NCBI RefSeq assembly: GCF_001276715.1
Contig: NZ_LIUQ01000019.1
Span: 24,441 to 88,440, forward strand
Direction of reading: 5' to 3'
Origin: Planktothricoides sp. SR001
Lineage (GTDB): Bacteria; Cyanobacteriota; Cyanobacteriia; Cyanobacteriales; Laspinemataceae
Length of the DNA: 64,000 nt
The translations under genes were made by a program, and so were the position numbers. The notes beneath the pieces were generated by a model. That model was not told the origin of the DNA and made no database searches. It was given only the letters and a program-made list of their open reading frames with translations. This document shows positions 9,873 through 49,816 of the stretch, piece after piece; the first letter of the stretch is position 1; every line of letters begins with the position of its first letter.

Positions 9873-11801
9873 TTAAGTCGAGGAAAGGCGATCGCGGAAA
9901 TCTTGAATCATCAACTCTAACCCTTGATCCAAAGGCACCGTCGGCTGCCACCCTAGGTAATGCTTGGCCTTAGTAATATCCGGTTGGCGCTGACGAGGAT
10001 CGTCTTGGGGCAGGGGCTTAAACTCAATTTGGGCATCGGGATTAATCATCTTTTGAATCTTCTCGGCCAACTCTAAAATAGTATATTCGCCCGGATTTCC
10101 CAGATTCACCGGCCCAATATAATCCCCATTCATCAACCGAATCAGTCCTTCGACTAAATCCGACACATAGCAGAAACTGCGGGTTTGGGAACCATCCCCA
10201 TACACCGTCAGAGGAATTCCCTGCAAAGCTTGCACCACGAAATTACTCACCACTCGTCCGTCATTTTCCAACATTCGAGGGCCATAAGTGTTGAAGATTC
10301 GCGCTACCCGAATATCCACATTATTTTGATGATGATAGTCAAAAGCCAGGGTTTCTGCGACTCGCTTCCCTTCGTCATAACAGTTACCGCACCAAGCAGC
10401 CCGTCCGTTGCGACGCACGCAGATCACATGATTACGGACATTCACGCAATACACTTTGCCCACATAGCGAACGCGGTCGGGGGAAACCAGGTGAGCGTCA
10501 ACAGCCGGTCGAATATTAACGTGATAAATATCCCGTCCTGCGGCGTGGGAAACTACTGATGCCGCATATCCGCAACGCAACGCTAACTCTTGCACATCGT
10601 CAGCAAGCTGCTTTGACTTGGTGTAATAAGTGTAACAATTGCCTCTTTGGGAGCCATCTCCGAGAATCAGCGCTTTTAGCAAAATCCAGGACTGTCGCGG
10701 TGATAGCTGAAGCAGTTCTCGCGGAATGTATTTGTCTCCTGACTTGCCAAATGGCAAGAGAATTTCCGCCAGTTGCTTGCTGCAAATTCTAAACTGGTGG
10801 TCGTCGGATTGGAAAAATTTGAAGCCCAGACGACTGAGACAAGCCGCTATTTTTGCCCGTCCTTCTGGGTTTTCTTGAGCAATCAAGATGTTGTAGTCAG
10901 CCACATCGTAGTCGGATCCATTGACGACGCGCCCCCGTTGGCGGACATGGACGCATCCTTCAGAAATGTAGTAACCGAAGAATTCCAGCCAGTCATCCAT
11001 CGCAATGCGTTCTACGCTGACTTTGGCATTTCGAGGAGGCTGACCTAGCTCAAACCATTCTGGTTCTTCTCCGACAAACTCCCCACCTGTAAGCACGCGC
11101 CACGAATGCCAGTGTTTGTCTTCATCAGCGCGGACAAACTTCAGAACGCCGGTTTTACTACGGACGTACATCCAGTGATTGGGGGTGACGCAAAAATCGA
11201 ATTTGGCATTGGCAAAATGTAGCAATTCGCCAATATAAGGCTGCTCGATATATTCGTCCGGGATATGGTATTCGACTTGGTTATTTGGATCTAGGGTGGC
11301 TACGCGAACCCCCGGTTTTAAATCCGGGAAAGCTACCCAGCCTTCCTCTGTTAAAATTTCGGTTTTTGAGTCGTAACATGATCTCGGTCCAATACAGTTC
11401 ACATTGCCCCGATACTCTTCGGTCTGGGGATGCACATCCGGGTCGCCATAGACCTCAGAGGTAGACGCTAGGAGAAATCGCGCCTTAATCCGCTTGGCTA
11501 ACCCCAGCATATGCATCGTCCCGATTACGTTGGTTTTAATCGTTTTGACGGGATTGTATTGATAGTGAACTGGGGAAGCGGGACAAGCGAGATGATAAAT
11601 CTGATCTACTTCCAGGCGAATCGGTTCGGTGACATCATGGCGAATCAGTTCAAAGTAAGGATTATCCATCCACTTGAGGATATTCCGCTTATTGCCGGTA
11701 AAAAAGTTATCTAGGCAAATAACATCGTGTCCTTGCTCCATTAATCGGTCGATCAAGTGGGAACCAATAAACCCCGCCCCACCCGTGACTAATATTCTCA
11801 T
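9873..11801 (-). CDS. UDP-glucuronate decarboxylase interrupted by an intein
   Basis: NAD-dependent short-chain dehydrogenase of the UXS type, converting UDP-glucuronate to UDP-xylose. The precursor is 642 residues; removing the intein (142-473) leaves 310, the usual length. Seen in the exteins: [11 protein letters not shown] (6-16) for [12 protein letters not shown] (113-121) and, after the intein, CYDEGK, which supplies the catalytic Tyr475 and Lys479 of the YxxxK pair. The enzyme is therefore inactive until the intein is removed. ATG 11801 gives a Rossmann fold starting at residue 2, so the start is firm. ugd follows 285 bp downstream on the same strand. A UDP-glucose/dTDP-sugar epimerase is the alternative, but [11 protein letters not shown]-type residues and neighbour favour UXS. 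Confidence 0.93.
10383..11378 (-). other. Intein with LAGLIDADG homing endonuclease
   Basis: 332-residue in-frame insert, precursor residues 142-473. N-terminal splice block [14 protein letters not shown] starts with Cys1; block B is VTPNHWM with the Thr-x-x-His pattern; the C-terminal end is NGRAAWCGN followed by Cys as the +1 extein residue. Two endonuclease motifs are visible: [11 protein letters not shown] (272-282) and [11 protein letters not shown] (374-384). The penultimate residue is Gly instead of the usual His, and the terminal Asn is present. Junctions read ...GPRS/CYDSK... and ...[10 protein letters not shown].... The intein's first three residues (CYD) are the same as the first three of the downstream extein. 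Confidence 0.93.
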
Positions 11802-43297: not shown

Positions 43298-44608
43298 TTA
43301 AGCTTCGCAACAAATCCGTTGCCAAGCCACCCATTCAGTTTCTTCCTCATCATCCTCATCGTCATAAAAATTTTCATCGGTATATTCAACTAAATAGGTA
43401 TCCCCTTTGATTTTTTTGATTTCTGCTTCATACCATTCCCCATCACTGTAAAGAACCTCAATTTCATCTCCCACTTCATAGTTACTGCCAGCGGGAGCAA
43501 GATTGGTTTGTGCGATCCATTCATCATCACTCGGATCGTTATTATAAAGATAACGGATTAAACAGAGATTTCCTTGCAGTTCCCGAACCGTCCCTGCATA
43601 CCAATAATCTTCACTGAGAACATCCACTAATTGTCCGACTTTAAATTCCCCATTACCAGAAGCTTGAGAACCAGAAGCTTGAGAACTGGAATCTGGGGTA
43701 GATGCTTCTGATTCATTTTTTACGGATTCGTATGCGGCTAAAATTAAGCTGCGGGCTACAGTTTGAATCCCGGTATGTTCATAATAGTTAGTCGTTTGGT
43801 CAAGGAAAGCCGCCACAAAATCTAACTTATCATCGGCAATTTGGATAAAGCTGCCAATACTTTGTAAAATCGTGTCTGGGGTGACACCCGTTTTACTAAT
43901 TAAACTATTCATCCAACCTTGAACGGCGTTGAAACTTTGGGTAATAAAACCGAATTTAGACGCCGGACTATCTCCTGGTAATGAGTTACTAATTGAGCCA
44001 AAAACCGGATTATCTTTAACGATGGCCGCATCCCCACCATCAATAATCGAGTGAATTTTCTGTAAGAAATCTGGACCTAAAGGCAGAATCCCATCTAGGC
44101 AAACTAAAGCTGCCATCCGCATTAAAGATGCGTCAGTATAGTTGTTAGTTAAAGATTCCACAAAGAGTTGGGGATTGGGTTGAGGAATGCCATTTATTTT
44201 ACAAAAGGCGATAATTTCAACGACAATTTTTAAGACTAAATCAATGGTTTGAGCGACATCAGCTTTAGGAGTGACTCGATTGAGAAATGAGAGAAATTCA
44301 ATTTTTTCCCCGATTTTATTCGCTAAGGCTGCTGTTGCCATTGCTGTATCGGCTTTGTCAATAAGTTGATATAGAGAAATCGCTGATTTATACCCGGTTT
44401 TGTTGTCTTCATAGAGTACCAAGGCACGTTCTTTAATCCGCTGTACCTTCTTGGGGTCATTTTCCCCGGTGACAACCCGAATTGTTTGGTCAAAACCAAC
44501 GGTATTTTGCCATTCTCCAGGGGCAACAAAGTCTAGGGCTTTGAGCACTTTAACGGTAATATTATCTTGCGGGAGTTGATCTACCAGTTGAACTATTGAT
44601 GAACTCAT
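43298..44608 (-). CDS. Cyanobacterial protein with two Tudor/agenet-like domains
   Basis: 436 residues. Residues 1-305 are helical and unrecognised (FDQTIRVVTGENDPKKVQRI, ATAALANKIGEKIEFLSFLN). A Ser/Gln linker (about 295-318, GSQASGSQASG) leads to two SH3-like barrels: domain 1 about 319-372 (KVGQLVDVLSEDYWYAGTVR, IRYLYNNDPSDDEWI) and domain 2 about 376-436 (YEVGDEIEVLYSDGEWYEAE, YLVEYTDENFYDDED). Such barrels bind methylated or charged peptide tails in eukaryotes and are uncommon in bacteria. No signal peptide; the start lacks a strong ribosome site. Function is unknown. Confidence 0.75.
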   Translation of the reverse strand: MSSSIVQLVDQLPQDNITVKVLKALDFVAPGEWQNTVGFDQTIRVVTGENDPKKVQRIKERALVLYEDNKTGYKSAISLYQLIDKADTAMATAALANKIGEKIEFLSFLNRVTPKADVAQTIDLVLKIVVEIIAFCKINGIPQPNPQLFVESLTNNYTDASLMRMAALVCLDGILPLGPDFLQKIHSIIDGGDAAIVKDNPVFGSISNSLPGDSPASKFGFITQSFNAVQGWMNSLISKTGVTPDTILQSIGSFIQIADDKLDFVAAFLDQTTNYYEHTGIQTVARSLILAAYESVKNESEASTPDSSSQASGSQASGNGEFKVGQLVDVLSEDYWYAGTVRELQGNLCLIRYLYNNDPSDDEWIAQTNLAPAGSNYEVGDEIEVLYSDGEWYEAEIKKIKGDTYLVEYTDENFYDDEDDEEETEWVAWQRICCEA

Positions 44609-45104: not shown

Positions 45105-48100
45105 TTACCAAGGACTCCCCACTAAGGTAAATCCAGCCCAATAATAAGGATGCTGAAAAGTTTCTTGGTCTACGGTAATTTCCGGGGGTAAAAGAATATC
45201 ATCATCAGAATTTAGAGCAATTAAATGACCATTTTCAATCCGCACATCTCCCCGCAGCATGGCGATTTGGGCTTCGCGCAATATTTCTGCTTTTAGCTTG
45301 GATTTTTTGTCAGTTTCTCCAGGATTTTCGCTGTCTTGAAATGCCAGCCGAATCTGCCGATACAATTCACTCATTAATCCCAAGGTAGCGCGATCGTCCA
45401 CATACCAAATACTGCCAATGGCGGATTTAACTTTAGCCTGCACTGCCAAACCAGCAAATCCTAATTCTGATGTTTCATTACCAAGAGCAGAATGGCAAGC
45501 CGACAAAATCATTAAATTAATCGGGGATGATCTCTCTAACAGAAACTCTCGCAGTTCACTCAAACTTAACTTGCGATCCCATAACTGAATATAAGAATCA
45601 CTGGGGGCGTCTGGGACAAATTCCGCATGAGTCGCTAAGTGGACAATCCCATAATTATGTTGACTAATTTGGTGGTGGAGATTTTCCCAGGTAAAAGCTT
45701 CATTCAGAAACGAGTCACCAGACCATGCTTGGGTAATAGTAGAAACTTCCAAAGGAACTCCGGGCAAATCAGCCAGATTATGTTCTTTAAATGTAGAAGA
45801 ACCCATTGCTAAAAGTTTGGCATTGGCTAAACTTTGATAGCTAGTATCTGTTAAATTTACACTAGGAATTAATCCCAGACTATACTTTTCAATTAAAAAC
45901 TTTTCTCCATCATGTAAAGCTGCTAAAGGAATGCTGCGTAACTGAGCATCCATGACAAATACTAAAGTGTCAATATTGAGTTGTTCTAGGTCAGGTTCAA
46001 TTGGTTCAATCATCCATTGATAAAGTTGCTGCGCTGATGCTAGATATCGATTGTTTTTTCTGTATCGAGGGCTGGTTATTTTCTCCATAAAATCTTTGAC
46101 TACTGGCAACATATTCTTTCGTCCAGCATCTCTGATTGGTCGATAGATGGGAGCGCCATTAATAGGTACTAAAATTACATCAAGTTGTTCATCCCGGATC
46201 ACCGTATAAACCAGCGCAAATTTTTTCTGAGTCGCTACGGAAATATTTTTTAATTCCTCTTGAATTGACTCAAAAGAGTTTAACTGAGGTTGGCTGGTTT
46301 CAACCTGACTTCCTGCGATGACTTCTTCCGTAAATACGCGATCGATAAAGGGAACAGCTTCCGATATTTCACCGGCATCAATTCGGTTAGCGATTTCAGT
46401 TTTGATCCCTAGAGGAATATTCCTTAGTCCAACTTTGATTGAATTGTCCGGCAATATTTCCCCTACTGTGGTATCGCTGCTAGAGTTTAAAACCGTCTGA
46501 CTGCTATTCTCTGTACTTTCACTTCCAGTCAATACATTAGCAATTTCAGTGGATGAATCTGATGAGATGACAGATTGAGAATTATTTTGTTCGATCGCAG
46601 GGTTTGACTCTACGATAGTTGGTGAATTTGTACTCTCTGGGACGGTTGAGACCGATGGTTCTGCGATCGCATTAACGGTGGTTATTTCTGGTTCTTCTGC
46701 CTGAGATGTTATTTCTTGGGTAGGAGTTTCTTCTATCGGAGTTTCTTCTATCGGAGTTTCTTCTATCGGAGTTTCTTCTATCGGAGTTTCTTCTATCGGA
46801 GTTTCTTCTATCAGAGTTTCTACGGTGGTTTCCTCTGTAGGAGTTTCTACGGTGGTTTCCTCTGTAGGAGTTTCTTCTGTGGTTTCTGAATCAATGGGGA
46901 CTGCTATATCTTCTTCTGGTGGTTCTGAAACTGGATTAGACGTTGTGATAATTGTGATATTGCCTTGAGTGTAAATCCCATCATCATCAACAGGCACCTC
47001 AAAGGTGGGTGAAATGGTTTCCGAACCCGTAGTTAATGCGGCTGCGGTGCCATTGGTGGTGGCATTTCCGACAATAAATGGTGTTTCGCTGCCTCCTGGG
47101 TGTCTGATGCTAATTGACCCACCACTGACTGTACCCGCAGTAGAAATGCTGGCGGTGCGATTATTTTGATCTACAAAACTGCCACGGGCTTGGAAAAAAT
47201 TGCCTGCATTAATATTAACATTGCCGCCAGTTCCATCACTCGCGAGTCCTTGAGCATCGATCGCAAATATGTCAACATTTGTTAATCCATTAATCGTCAC
47301 ATTGCCGCCATTATCAGCACTAGAATTTAACAAGCCCATAATTTGCATATTACCCTGGGCAAAAAGATTAATATCTCCTCCTTGGGTGACGATTCGGTCA
47401 ATGATTAATTGGCCGCCTGAGTTAATAATCACCGGCCCCCCTGGAGTGGAAATCTGACTCACAGAAATATCCCGATTAAGTTGCTCGGAGTCAGAGAGAA
47501 ACGCGGTGTTTATCACGGTCAAATCCGGGGGAATATTCGCCGGATTAGTCAGACTAGAAACGCCGGATCTTAAAATTAATGCTGGGGAGTTGGCCAAGAT
47601 TTCCGCATCAGGATCCGGCAAACCGGATAAAGTCACATCTGGGTTAGTAATAGTGATATTCCCGGCATCAATTCCTCCCGTGGCTTCTACTTTTAAGGAA
47701 ACCCCAGTATATTCATCAAAACTCACATTACCATCAGCACTAATAATTGGGTCATAATAACTGATAAAATCACCGAAATCGCCAGCTACAGTACGAATAA
47801 AGAAATTGCCCTCCGTGGCAAAATGAGCATCGGTGGCAATATTTCCCCCACTAATTAAGGTAATATCACCCCCTGCCTGAAAAGTTGCGCCTTGGTTGAC
47901 AGAATTCAGGGCGAAAATATCAATTTTTTGCAGTCCAGTTAGATTCATATTTCCGCCTGCGATCGCGGAAAATGGGTTTTGACTATCCCGAACAATCAGC
48001 GTATTTTTCGCCAATAAATTTAAATCTTGGCTAGTTTGGATTTCACTCCCGAATAAACTTAAATTATTAGCAGCGGATAAAGTAGCATTTCCTGAGATAA

Positions 48101-49031
48101 TTGTTGCCGATTGATTTGATTGATTCGTGGGTTGAATCACCACATCCCCATTGCCTATCCCCAAGGCAGAACCGGATAAAACTACTTGTCCCGCTTCATT
48201 GAATGTCACCTGGTTGGCATCAATAATATTGCCACCCCCGGTTAATAATTCAGGGAGAGAAAGTGGATTAAAAGCCTCGGTTTTTAAATTGGATAAACTC
48301 ACTTCTAAACTCAGTAAATGTCCGGGCTGACTAATCCGCAAAATACTTTCCCCTGGAACCGCAGTAATAATCAGATTCCCTTGGGGTGCAGCGAGAGACC
48401 CGGTACTGAGTATGGTTCCGCCAATCAAAGATAAAGATTGTCCTGATCGCACCGCTAAATCGGCAAAATTAATCAGACTCCCTGGCTGAATATTGTCAAA
48501 AGAAAAATAAATCGGATTCCCGACTAATGTGGTATAATTATTATTGCCGAATACTTGCAATATTCCGGCATCAAAGCCTAAACTGGTGGCAGTGGTGGCG
48601 GTAAAATCACCGAGGACATTTAAGGCAGCATTTTGACCAAATACTATGCCTGCCGGATTGAGCAAAAAGAGGTTAGAATTTCCACCATTAACTTGAATTA
48701 AACCATTAATTAACGATGGATTACCCCCAGAAATTTGTCCGAGAATATTGACAATTTCTGGACGGGATAAAAAGTTGGCAATTTGTCCATCACTCAGTCC
48801 AAATTCTTGGAAATTGTGAAATAAATTTGCCCCATCTCCAGAGGTTTTACCCCCGGTAATGTTAATCTGATTTCCCTCAGTAGTGACAACGGTTCCCGTC
48901 CCGTCTGTTGCTGGGGTAATTGTTTGGGCAAAGACTAGACCCTTATTAACTCCTAGGGTCAGGAAAAGGACTAAGAAGAATAAGGGATAAAAGGGCGATC
49001 GCCCATCAAAATTAGTAATTCTTCTTTTCAT
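45105..49031 (-). CDS. Two-partner-secretion exoprotein with C-terminal CHAT domain
   Basis: 1308 residues. Signal peptide about 1-35 (LFFLVLFLTLGVNKGLVFAQ), then a filamentous-haemagglutinin TPS secretion domain (about 36-270) with the hallmark NGLIQVNGGNSNLFLLNPAG and IVFGQNAALNV. A beta-helix region follows (to about 680), then an acidic Thr/Glu/Pro linker with IEETP repeats (about 735-775), and a C-terminal CHAT protease-like domain (about 985-1308) with catalytic His1135 (HLATHAEF) and Cys1179 (LSACHSALG). It is expected to be exported across both membranes by a TpsB partner, which is not in the window. The CHAT dyad is intact, so it may be an extracellular caspase-like protease (inference). 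Confidence 0.9.
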   Translation of the reverse strand: MKRRITNFDGRSPFYPLFFLVLFLTLGVNKGLVFAQTITPATDGTGTVVTTEGNQINITGGKTSGDGANLFHNFQEFGLSDGQIANFLSRPEIVNILGQISGGNPSLINGLIQVNGGNSNLFLLNPAGIVFGQNAALNVLGDFTATTATSLGFDAGILQVFGNNNYTTLVGNPIYFSFDNIQPGSLINFADLAVRSGQSLSLIGGTILSTGSLAAPQGNLIITAVPGESILRISQPGHLLSLEVSLSNLKTEAFNPLSLPELLTGGGNIIDANQVTFNEAGQVVLSGSALGIGNGDVVIQPTNQSNQSATIISGNATLSAANNLSLFGSEIQTSQDLNLLAKNTLIVRDSQNPFSAIAGGNMNLTGLQKIDIFALNSVNQGATFQAGGDITLISGGNIATDAHFATEGNFFIRTVAGDFGDFISYYDPIISADGNVSFDEYTGVSLKVEATGGIDAGNITITNPDVTLSGLPDPDAEILANSPALILRSGVSSLTNPANIPPDLTVINTAFLSDSEQLNRDISVSQISTPGGPVIINSGGQLIIDRIVTQGGDINLFAQGNMQIMGLLNSSADNGGNVTINGLTNVDIFAIDAQGLASDGTGGNVNINAGNFFQARGSFVDQNNRTASISTAGTVSGGSISIRHPGGSETPFIVGNATTNGTAAALTTGSETISPTFEVPVDDDGIYTQGNITIITTSNPVSEPPEEDIAVPIDSETTEETPTEETTVETPTEETTVETLIEETPIEETPIEETPIEETPIEETPIEETPTQEITSQAEEPEITTVNAIAEPSVSTVPESTNSPTIVESNPAIEQNNSQSVISSDSSTEIANVLTGSESTENSSQTVLNSSSDTTVGEILPDNSIKVGLRNIPLGIKTEIANRIDAGEISEAVPFIDRVFTEEVIAGSQVETSQPQLNSFESIQEELKNISVATQKKFALVYTVIRDEQLDVILVPINGAPIYRPIRDAGRKNMLPVVKDFMEKITSPRYRKNNRYLASAQQLYQWMIEPIEPDLEQLNIDTLVFVMDAQLRSIPLAALHDGEKFLIEKYSLGLIPSVNLTDTSYQSLANAKLLAMGSSTFKEHNLADLPGVPLEVSTITQAWSGDSFLNEAFTWENLHHQISQHNYGIVHLATHAEFVPDAPSDSYIQLWDRKLSLSELREFLLERSSPINLMILSACHSALGNETSELGFAGLAVQAKVKSAIGSIWYVDDRATLGLMSELYRQIRLAFQDSENPGETDKKSKLKAEILREAQIAMLRGDVRIENGHLIALNSDDDILLPPEITVDQETFQHPYYWAGFTLVGSPW
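46726..46815 (-). repeat. 15-bp coding repeat (IEETP), six units
   Basis: GTTTCTTCTATCGGA on the plus strand, five exact and one changed copy, encoding IEETP units in the linker before the CHAT region of the exoprotein; preceded by VETPTEETT units. Length may vary between strains by slippage. Confidence 0.9.
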
Positions 49032-49072: not shown

Positions 49073-49816
49073 TTAAATAAACTGAATTAAGCTAATTTCA
49101 CTTGGCTGAATTCCTAATAAAATGGCTATATATTCCCCGGTTGCTTGATGCTGAATGATTAGATCGTTAGTATAATTTCCCGTTCCTTGGGTAATATTTA
49201 AGGATTCAGAAGTTAAGCCCCCTGCGGTGGCAGAATCCATTAAATCGATAAAATCTTCCTGCACATTAAAATCAGTAATAACATCTGCTGCTTCTAATGT
49301 CAATCCGTCCATGCCTAAACCGATCGCAAATACATCCCCCGTCCTTGCCCTCCCGTGAGGGTATCTGCACCTAAATCCCCCGATAAATAGTCATTATCTT
49401 TATGACCCAATAGCCGATCGCTGCCATCTCCTCCTAACAGGCGATCGCTGCCACTTTCCCCAAACATTAAATCATTGCCTGCACTACCTTCAATATAATC
49501 ATTGCCCTGACCGCCCCAAATTTTATCATCGCCATCCCCTCCTAAAATATAGTCATCATTCTCCCGACCATATAGGCGATCGCTCCCCCCTTGAGCATCA
49601 ATAAAATCATTGCTTTCTCGTCCATGTAGAATATTCATTTCCACAGTTACAAGGAGGCGATCGTTCAAATTAGTTCCGGCCAAATTTGGGCGATCGTCAC
49701 CTTGAAAAACCTCTCCTAAATCATCATTGTCGCTCACATTAGCGGTTAAATTCACCGTTAAATTATTATACTGAGAATCGCTACTGGTGATAGCATGAGT
49801 AATCTGACTATTGTGC
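49073..49816 (-). pseudogene. C-terminal remnant of a Calx-beta/haemolysin-type calcium-binding protein
   Basis: Reading from the IS border (49816): HNSQITHAITSSDSQYNN, LTVNLTANVSDNDD, the end of a Calx-beta-like repeat, then RTX-like nonapeptides (GRENDDYILGGDGDDKIWGG, GNDLMFGESGSDRLLGGDGS) to 49335. An extra or missing base in a G-run (CGGGGGATG near 49338) shifts the frame; the rest continues as DVFAIGLGMDGLTLEAADVI and ITDFNVQEDFIDL, ending at 49073. The N-terminal bulk of the gene is gone, cut at the ISL3-type element. It lies directly upstream of the CHAT exoprotein gene in the same direction. Confidence 0.85.

What the first reader, a model, noticed from the sequence alone, without database searches (positions are those of the whole stretch)
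45105..49031. Two-partner-secreted CHAT protease with an expandable linker
One polypeptide joins a TPS export domain, a beta-helix shaft, an IEETP/VETPTEE repeat linker and an intact CHAT His/Cys pair. A caspase-like protease carried outside the cell on a haemagglutinin shaft would be an unusual effector. CHAT proteases in bacteria act as immune effectors (established for CRISPR-linked and gasdermin-linked systems), but those are cytosolic.
Basis: partly seen in the sequence, partly recalled or inferred. Interest (0 to 1): 0.6.

Follow-up and report, generated by a model that had tools for sequence, protein, structure and literature searches.

The report
Exported caspase-like protease of cyanobacteria
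This cyanobacterial gene encodes a large protein built to be exported through the outer membrane, with a caspase-like protease on its end; it belongs to a multi-copy family I found only in cyanobacteria and in no paper searched, suggesting that such proteases also work outside the cell.

Summary
ORF 45105-49031(-), 1308 aa, is a signal peptide, TPS secretion domain, beta-helix, conserved cap, P/E/T-rich repeat linker and C-terminal CHAT domain with His1135/Cys1179. The CHAT model (pLDDT 92) matches Csx29/TPR-CHAT, separase, gingipain and caspases. All 54 fusion ORFs surveyed keep His and Cys. Fusion CHAT domains hold almost no cysteine except the catalytic one (59 in 19,818 aa), and in 32 of 54 it is the only cysteine of the mature protein. 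In this genome, exported CHATs have lost other cysteines and cytosolic ones have not (p=3e-4). That argues for real export and a catalytically important Cys. The linker does expand: the sister genome has 8.5 versus 6.6 copies of the 15-bp unit. It is not a one-off: two paralogues in the genome and dozens of relatives. No TpsB is nearby; the genome has two elsewhere, and relatives have TpsB beside such fusions. Exported CHAT genes here cluster with DUF928 and CHASE2 sensor genes. CDI-type toxin delivery is disfavoured. Secretion, activity and substrate are untested, and whether CHAT ends outside or in the periplasm is open. A close relative's copy is frameshifted.

The parts
45105..49031 (-). 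TPS-CHAT fusion gene, 1308 aa
48927..49031 (-). signal peptide, residues 1-35, predicted cleavage VFA|QT
   Evidence: read from sequence; a hydrophobic segment precedes TPS in 51 of 53 testable fusions
48255..48908 (-). TPS secretion domain, residues 42-259, with NPAG motif at 125-128
   Evidence: PF05860 2.8e-38; profile matches HMW1, EtpA and FHA structures
47382..48206 (-). beta-helical shaft, residues 276-550
   Evidence: AlphaFold model mean pLDDT 80; Foldseek HxuA, EtpA, HMW1, FHA, HpmA
46941..47381 (-). conserved cap module, residues 551-697
   Evidence: alignment; full-length only in the three CHAT fusions of this genome
46392..46940 (-). P/E/T-rich variable linker, residues 698-880
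46723..46821 (-). 15-bp tandem array coding (IEETP)n, 6.6 copies at 98%
   Evidence: 8.5 copies in sister genome L027
46041..46391 (-). pre-CHAT segment, residues 881-997, no TPR
45114..46040 (-). CHAT peptidase domain, residues 998-1306
   Evidence: PF12770 9.7e-59; model pLDDT 92.1 and Foldseek
45627..45629 (-). catalytic His1135 codon
   Evidence: His in 121 of 121 comparable CHAT domains
45495..45497 (-). catalytic Cys1179 codon
   Evidence: Cys in 121 of 121 comparable CHAT domains; only Cys of residues 39-1308

Best explanation
A TpsA-type exported protein whose C-terminal passenger is a catalytically competent CHAT cysteine protease. Steps: (1) Sec export by the N-terminal signal peptide (sequence evidence). 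(2) The TPS domain is recognised by one of the genome's two unlinked TpsB pores and the chain is threaded out unfolded, folding into a beta-helix shaft (inferred from homology). (3) After the shaft and cap, a disordered P/E/T-rich repeat linker of variable length holds the CHAT domain away from the shaft (inferred from sequence). (4) CHAT folds like Csx29 and separase, with the His1135/Cys1179 dyad, and cleaves one or a few sites in a surface, matrix, neighbouring-filament or self substrate (inferred). (5) In many loci exported CHATs sit beside CHASE2 sensor kinases/cyclases and DUF928, so the family may be the proteolytic arm of an envelope-sensing system (inferred; not adjacent in this window). 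The confidence refers to steps 1, 2 and 4 up to catalytic competence, not to the substrate.
For: Domains and dyad. CHAT model pLDDT 92.1; Foldseek best Csx29 1.1e-14, then separase, SAVED-CHAT, gingipain RgpB, caspases. TPS+helix model matches HxuA, EtpA, HMW1, FHA, HpmA. 54 of 54 fusions keep H and C. Cysteine stripping: 59 Cys in 19,818 aa of 54 fusion CHAT domains (54 of them catalytic) against 1.14% background; 32 of 54 have no other Cys in the mature chain; exported versus cytosolic CHATs of this genome p=3e-4. CHAT dN/dS 0.10 against 0.27-0.34 elsewhere in the gene, leaving out the signal peptide. TpsB tail-to-tail within about 150 bp of fusion genes in L034, L040 and L061, and adjacent in L122. 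Of 59 genomes, all 55 with the CHAT subfamily have TpsB, and the 3 without TpsB lack it. CHASE2 near CHAT 8 of 15, p~1e-7.
Against: No secretion or activity data. No TpsB adjacent; 18 TPS matches share 2 TpsBs. His-Cys distance not measured (coordinates not available). The sister genome's orthologue is frameshifted after the Cys by a 23-bp insertion, so it is dispensable there or misassembled. The neighbouring RTX ORF also looks broken. Low Cys is common among exported proteins, so it supports export more than activity.
Confidence: 0.62

Rival explanations
1. Periplasmic variant: the shaft is exported but the C-terminal CHAT stays in the periplasm behind the linker, as the C-terminal parts of FHA and CdiA do, and cuts envelope proteins there.
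For: CHAT is always C-terminal, hence last to exit; signal-peptide-only CHATs without TPS form a cluster inside the fusion tree, so an exported but not necessarily surface location is tolerated; proximity of CHASE2 sensors.
Against: No known arrest motif sought or found; the low-Cys, long flexible linker is equally compatible with full exit.
Confidence: 0.25
2. Self-processing protease: CHAT cuts its own linker or cap to release the shaft or itself.
For: Linker next to the protease is variable in length and repeat-rich; autoproteolytic roles proposed for caspase-like domains in secreted proteins (PMC3482391).
Against: Linker repeat unit differs between paralogues and relatives, so no conserved cleavage site there; internal releasing peptidases normally precede a separate toxin domain, and nothing follows CHAT here.
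Confidence: 0.2
3. Contact-dependent toxin: CHAT is a CdiA-CT-like toxin delivered into neighbours.
For: TpsA architecture with a C-terminal enzymatic domain; caspase-like C-terminal toxins proposed in polymorphic toxins (PMC3482391).
Against: The C-terminal domain is not polymorphic (CHAT in all fusions, about 48% mean column identity); no recurrent small downstream immunity gene; several paralogues per genome, some in tandem.
Confidence: 0.08
4. Dead enzyme: CHAT serves only as an adhesin or structural tip.
For: One orthologue is frameshifted.
Against: H and C invariant in 121 of 121; catalytic Cys retained while nearly all other Cys are lost; CHAT is the most constrained part.
Confidence: 0.05

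Closest known systems
TpsA proteins of two-partner secretion (FHA, HMW1, HxuA, EtpA)
   Same: Signal peptide, TPS domain, NPxG motif, beta-helix; structural matches
   Different: Carries a C-terminal CHAT protease and a repeat linker; no adjacent TpsB
LepA of Pseudomonas aeruginosa (TPS-secreted protease)
   Same: A protease exported by two-partner secretion (PMC5422565)
   Different: LepA is trypsin-like (from memory); this one has a caspase-fold cysteine peptidase
Csx29/TPR-CHAT of Craspase
   Same: Closest solved CHAT fold; dyad spacing 44 here against 42 (H585/C627) and 43 (H615/C658); Glu at His+2 (E1137; E617 in Csx29)
   Different: No TPR, no CRISPR partner nearby, exported, no cysteine but the catalytic one; residue after Cys mostly Arg in the family
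HetF of Anabaena (CHAT prototype)
   Same: Cyanobacterial CHAT protease outside immunity (PMC8406250, PMC12288457)
   Different: HetF has TM and TPR regions and acts at the divisome and on PatU3
Gingipain RgpB and other clan CD secreted proteases
   Same: Caspase-fold cysteine protease outside the cell; Foldseek 4e-5
   Different: Different family and secretion route

Membership tests
TpsA / two-partner secretion exoprotein | Sec signal peptide followed by TPS domain (PF05860) with NPxG motif | tested here: met
TpsA / two-partner secretion exoprotein | right-handed beta-helix shaft | tested here: met
   model pLDDT 80 and Foldseek to TpsA structures
TpsA / two-partner secretion exoprotein | cognate TpsB in the same locus (usual, not obligatory) | tested here: not met
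   none near the gene; two TpsBs elsewhere in the genome. Other arrangements and shared TpsBs are known (PMC5422565); relatives have adjacent TpsB
TpsA / two-partner secretion exoprotein | secretion to the surface or medium | not testable with these tools
   no proteomic data for this organism
CHAT peptidase (PF12770, clan CD) | profile match above gathering score | tested here: met
   199.6 bits, cut-off 24
CHAT peptidase (PF12770, clan CD) | His/Cys dyad in a caspase-like fold | tested here: met
   H1135 in strand 247-258 and C1179 in strand 293-301 of the model; 121 of 121 conserved; Foldseek Csx29/separase/caspase. Atomic distance not measured
CHAT peptidase (PF12770, clan CD) | proteolytic activity | not testable with these tools
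   needs enzyme assay
Craspase Csx29 / TPR-CHAT | N-terminal TPR and type III-E CRISPR partner | tested here: not met
   no TPR in the protein and no cas gene among the ten window ORFs scanned; the whole genome was not searched for cas genes
CDI (CdiA) / polymorphic toxin | variable C-terminal toxin with adjacent immunity gene | tested here: not met
   C-terminus always CHAT; no recurrent downstream gene

The most novel reading that the evidence does not exclude
Multicellular cyanobacteria carry a large, undescribed branch of exported caspase-like proteases, some on two-partner-secreted shafts and some on signal peptides alone. Its members keep only the catalytic cysteine and work with CHASE2 sensor proteins and DUF928 as an envelope or extracellular proteolytic signalling system.
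Probability: 0.35. Interest if true: 0.75.

Novelty: new variant of a known kind. Interest (0 to 1): 0.55.

Why it matters
Bacterial CHAT proteases are best known as intracellular immune effectors (Craspase, SAVED-CHAT, gasdermin-linked systems) and, in Anabaena, as the divisome protease HetF. A widespread exported branch, with many copies per genome in filamentous cyanobacteria, would move caspase-like proteolysis to the cell envelope or surface. It would also make testable what these many proteases do in filament communities. The cysteine-stripping pattern gives a simple sequence test for exported versus cytosolic CHAT proteins.

Tried and rejected
Sequence-only search of PDB with the whole protein and with the CHAT profile found no relative; only fold comparison did. 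PADLOC gave only a weak BovA match, so a named defence system was not supported. Literature search found no paper on TPS-CHAT fusions; a large part of subscription literature is not held. A single 10-residue peptide (SLSLLGGTVV) assigned to a Nostoc 'CHAT domain-containing protein' in a sonicated water extract (PMC9895726) fits a TPS domain, which suggests a fusion of this kind, but the assignment (E 0.012) is too weak to count as detection. Assembly chimera was rejected: the same domain order occurs in independent genomes, including the near-identical L027. CDI-type toxin was rejected as the leading idea (no immunity gene, no C-terminal polymorphism). A first attempt to compute dN/dS downstream of the L027 frameshift was misaligned by one codon; the corrected comparison (90 of 96 aa identical, 13 nt differences, 10 at third positions) suggests the break is recent or an assembly error.

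Full report
OBSERVATION. The window comes from a cyanobacterial genome of 7.07 Mb (G000; the closest named relative found is an Oscillatoriales MAG). The ORF at 45105-49031, minus strand, is 1308 aa. Pfam gives TPS (42-259, 2.8e-38) and CHAT (998-1306, 9.7e-59). A signal peptide ends at VFA|QT; NPAG is at 125; HLATH ends at His1135; SAC ends at Cys1179; six IEETP units start at 741. In DNA the linker is a 15-bp tandem array of 6.6 copies at 98% identity.

ANATOMY. Alignment with two paralogues in the same genome (2705 and 2317 aa, L023 and L024) shows the same order with a much longer shaft and different linker repeats. A conserved cap of about 147 aa (551-697) lies between shaft and linker. 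In this genome full-length cap matches occur only in the three CHAT fusions, at 168-194 bits; all other matches are partial and below 30 bits. In relatives where the cap is found nearly in full, the cap-to-CHAT gap mostly runs from about 60 to 550 aa, with one longer case at 940 aa, and the linker repeats differ by lineage, e.g. PTPEP, NPNNPDNP, ETPGG. 17 fusions show no cap match at all. The sister genome L027 has 8.5 copies of the 15-bp unit against 6.6 here. So 'expandable linker' is right, as a fast-changing low-complexity spacer.

FOLD. The pre-CHAT+CHAT region (881-1308) modelled with 59 sequences reaches mean pLDDT 92.1 and pTM 0.92. Foldseek against PDB gives Csx29/TPR-CHAT (1.1e-14), separase, SAVED-CHAT, gingipain RgpB and caspases. 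His1135 and Cys1179 sit on two strands of the model. Their spacing, 44, compares with 42 and 43 in TPR-CHAT (H585/C627) and Csx29 (H615/C658). Glu1137 occupies the position of E617, which positions the Csx29 His. I could not measure the dyad distance. The TPS+shaft+cap model (36-700, pLDDT 80) matches HxuA, EtpA, HMW1, FHA and HpmA.

FAMILY. A scan of one genome per species returned 276 relatives; the best 80 gave 78 loci, all titled as cyanobacteria. 55 of 59 relatives' genomes have the CHAT subfamily. A stricter, cap-based search finds fusions in 38 of 59 close relatives and in 15 of 116 genomes drawn across the phylum, mostly in the same order. All 54 ORFs with both TPS and CHAT keep His and Cys, as do 121 of 121 comparable CHAT domains overall. 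In a quick tree the CHATs with only a signal peptide form essentially one cluster inside the fusions (3 changes against 16.4 shuffled), with modest support on the deeper branches.

EXPORT AND CATALYSIS: THE CYSTEINE TEST. Proteins threaded unfolded through the envelope tend to avoid cysteine. In 54 fusions the CHAT domains contain 59 cysteines in 19,818 aa, 54 of them catalytic, against 1.14% in cytosolic-like ORFs of the window (about 226 expected). In 32 of 54 the catalytic Cys is the only cysteine of the whole mature chain, including the window protein. Within this one genome, 10 signal-peptide CHATs have 0-0.6 non-catalytic Cys per 100 aa and 6 CHATs without signal peptide have 0.6-2.6 (one-sided Mann-Whitney p=3e-4). 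The two sets differ in subfamily, so this is an association, but keeping just this Cys while losing the rest points to a working thiol enzyme outside the cytosol. Between the window and L027 the CHAT region up to the frameshift has dN/dS 0.10, against 0.27-0.34 for TPS, shaft, cap and linker.

TpsB. No TpsB lies near the window gene; the genome has two clear ones, on other contigs, for 18 TPS matches. Sharing of TpsBs and unlinked arrangements are known (PMC5422565). In relatives, TpsB lies tail to tail with the fusion, about 110-150 bp away in L034, L040 and L061, and likewise adjacent in L122. All 55 relatives with the subfamily have TpsB, and the three without TpsB lack the subfamily; shared ancestry weakens this test.

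NEIGHBOURS AND WORKING MODEL. In this genome 8 of 15 CHASE2 genes lie within 3 kb of a CHAT (p about 1e-7, although two are identical contig ends), often with DUF928 beside them; three loci pair a TPS gene with a nearby secreted TPR-CHAT-type gene. In Laspinema and two Oscillatoria relatives the fusion is followed 79-80 bp downstream by a CHASE2 protein, identified as a histidine kinase in one of them. This suggests that exported CHATs belong to an envelope-sensing module. The window gene itself has no CHASE2 or DUF928 neighbour. Substrate, activation and final location are not shown.

LIMITS. The orthologue in L027 carries a 58-aa repeat insertion in the shaft and a 23-bp insertion after IWYVDD that breaks the CHAT frame; reading downstream, 90 of 96 residues are still identical. 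This is either a recent loss or an assembly error in a MAG. I found no paper on TPS-CHAT proteins in the library searched, but most subscription papers are missing, and public annotation already names such proteins 'CHAT domain-containing'. The claim is therefore a new variant, not a new category.

Noticed in passing
window 49073-49755 (-): RTX/hemolysin-type calcium-binding repeat ORF directly upstream is split into two frames (49315-49755 and 49073-49312), so it looks frameshifted.
   Followed up: partly
window 43298-44608 (-): Downstream neighbour carries an Agenet domain (2.4e-16), a Tudor-like domain best known from eukaryotic chromatin proteins.
   Followed up: no
L027 8115-8240: 58-aa insertion in the beta-helix of the sister orthologue, starting FMDSRLRGND, followed by a 7-copy 18-bp array; looks like a REP-derived repeat that entered a coding region in frame.
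   Followed up: partly
L027 about 10850-10880: 23-bp insertion breaks the CHAT frame just downstream of the catalytic Cys.
   Followed up: partly
L086 5723-11029; L089 4565-11032: A family 2 glycosyltransferase lies in the same ORF upstream of the TPS domain in two genomes; either a real fusion or a lost stop codon.
   Followed up: partly
G000 C88, C64, C76, C87, C115, C118, C77: Recurrent CHAT-DUF928-CHASE2 gene cluster; 9 of 16 DUF928 lie within 3 kb of a CHASE2 gene (p about 7e-13).
   Followed up: partly
G000 C88 and C126: CHAT and CHASE2 matches at identical coordinates on two contigs suggest a duplicated contig start in the assembly.
   Followed up: no
L099 8058-11050 (Nostoc sp. FACHB-973): A CHAT ORF that begins at the cap end, apparently a truncated fusion, sits head to head with a TpsB ORF of 463 aa.
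   Followed up: no
L023 1712-8383: A 2223-aa ORF next to one paralogue looks TamB-like at its C-terminus (by eye only).
   Followed up: no
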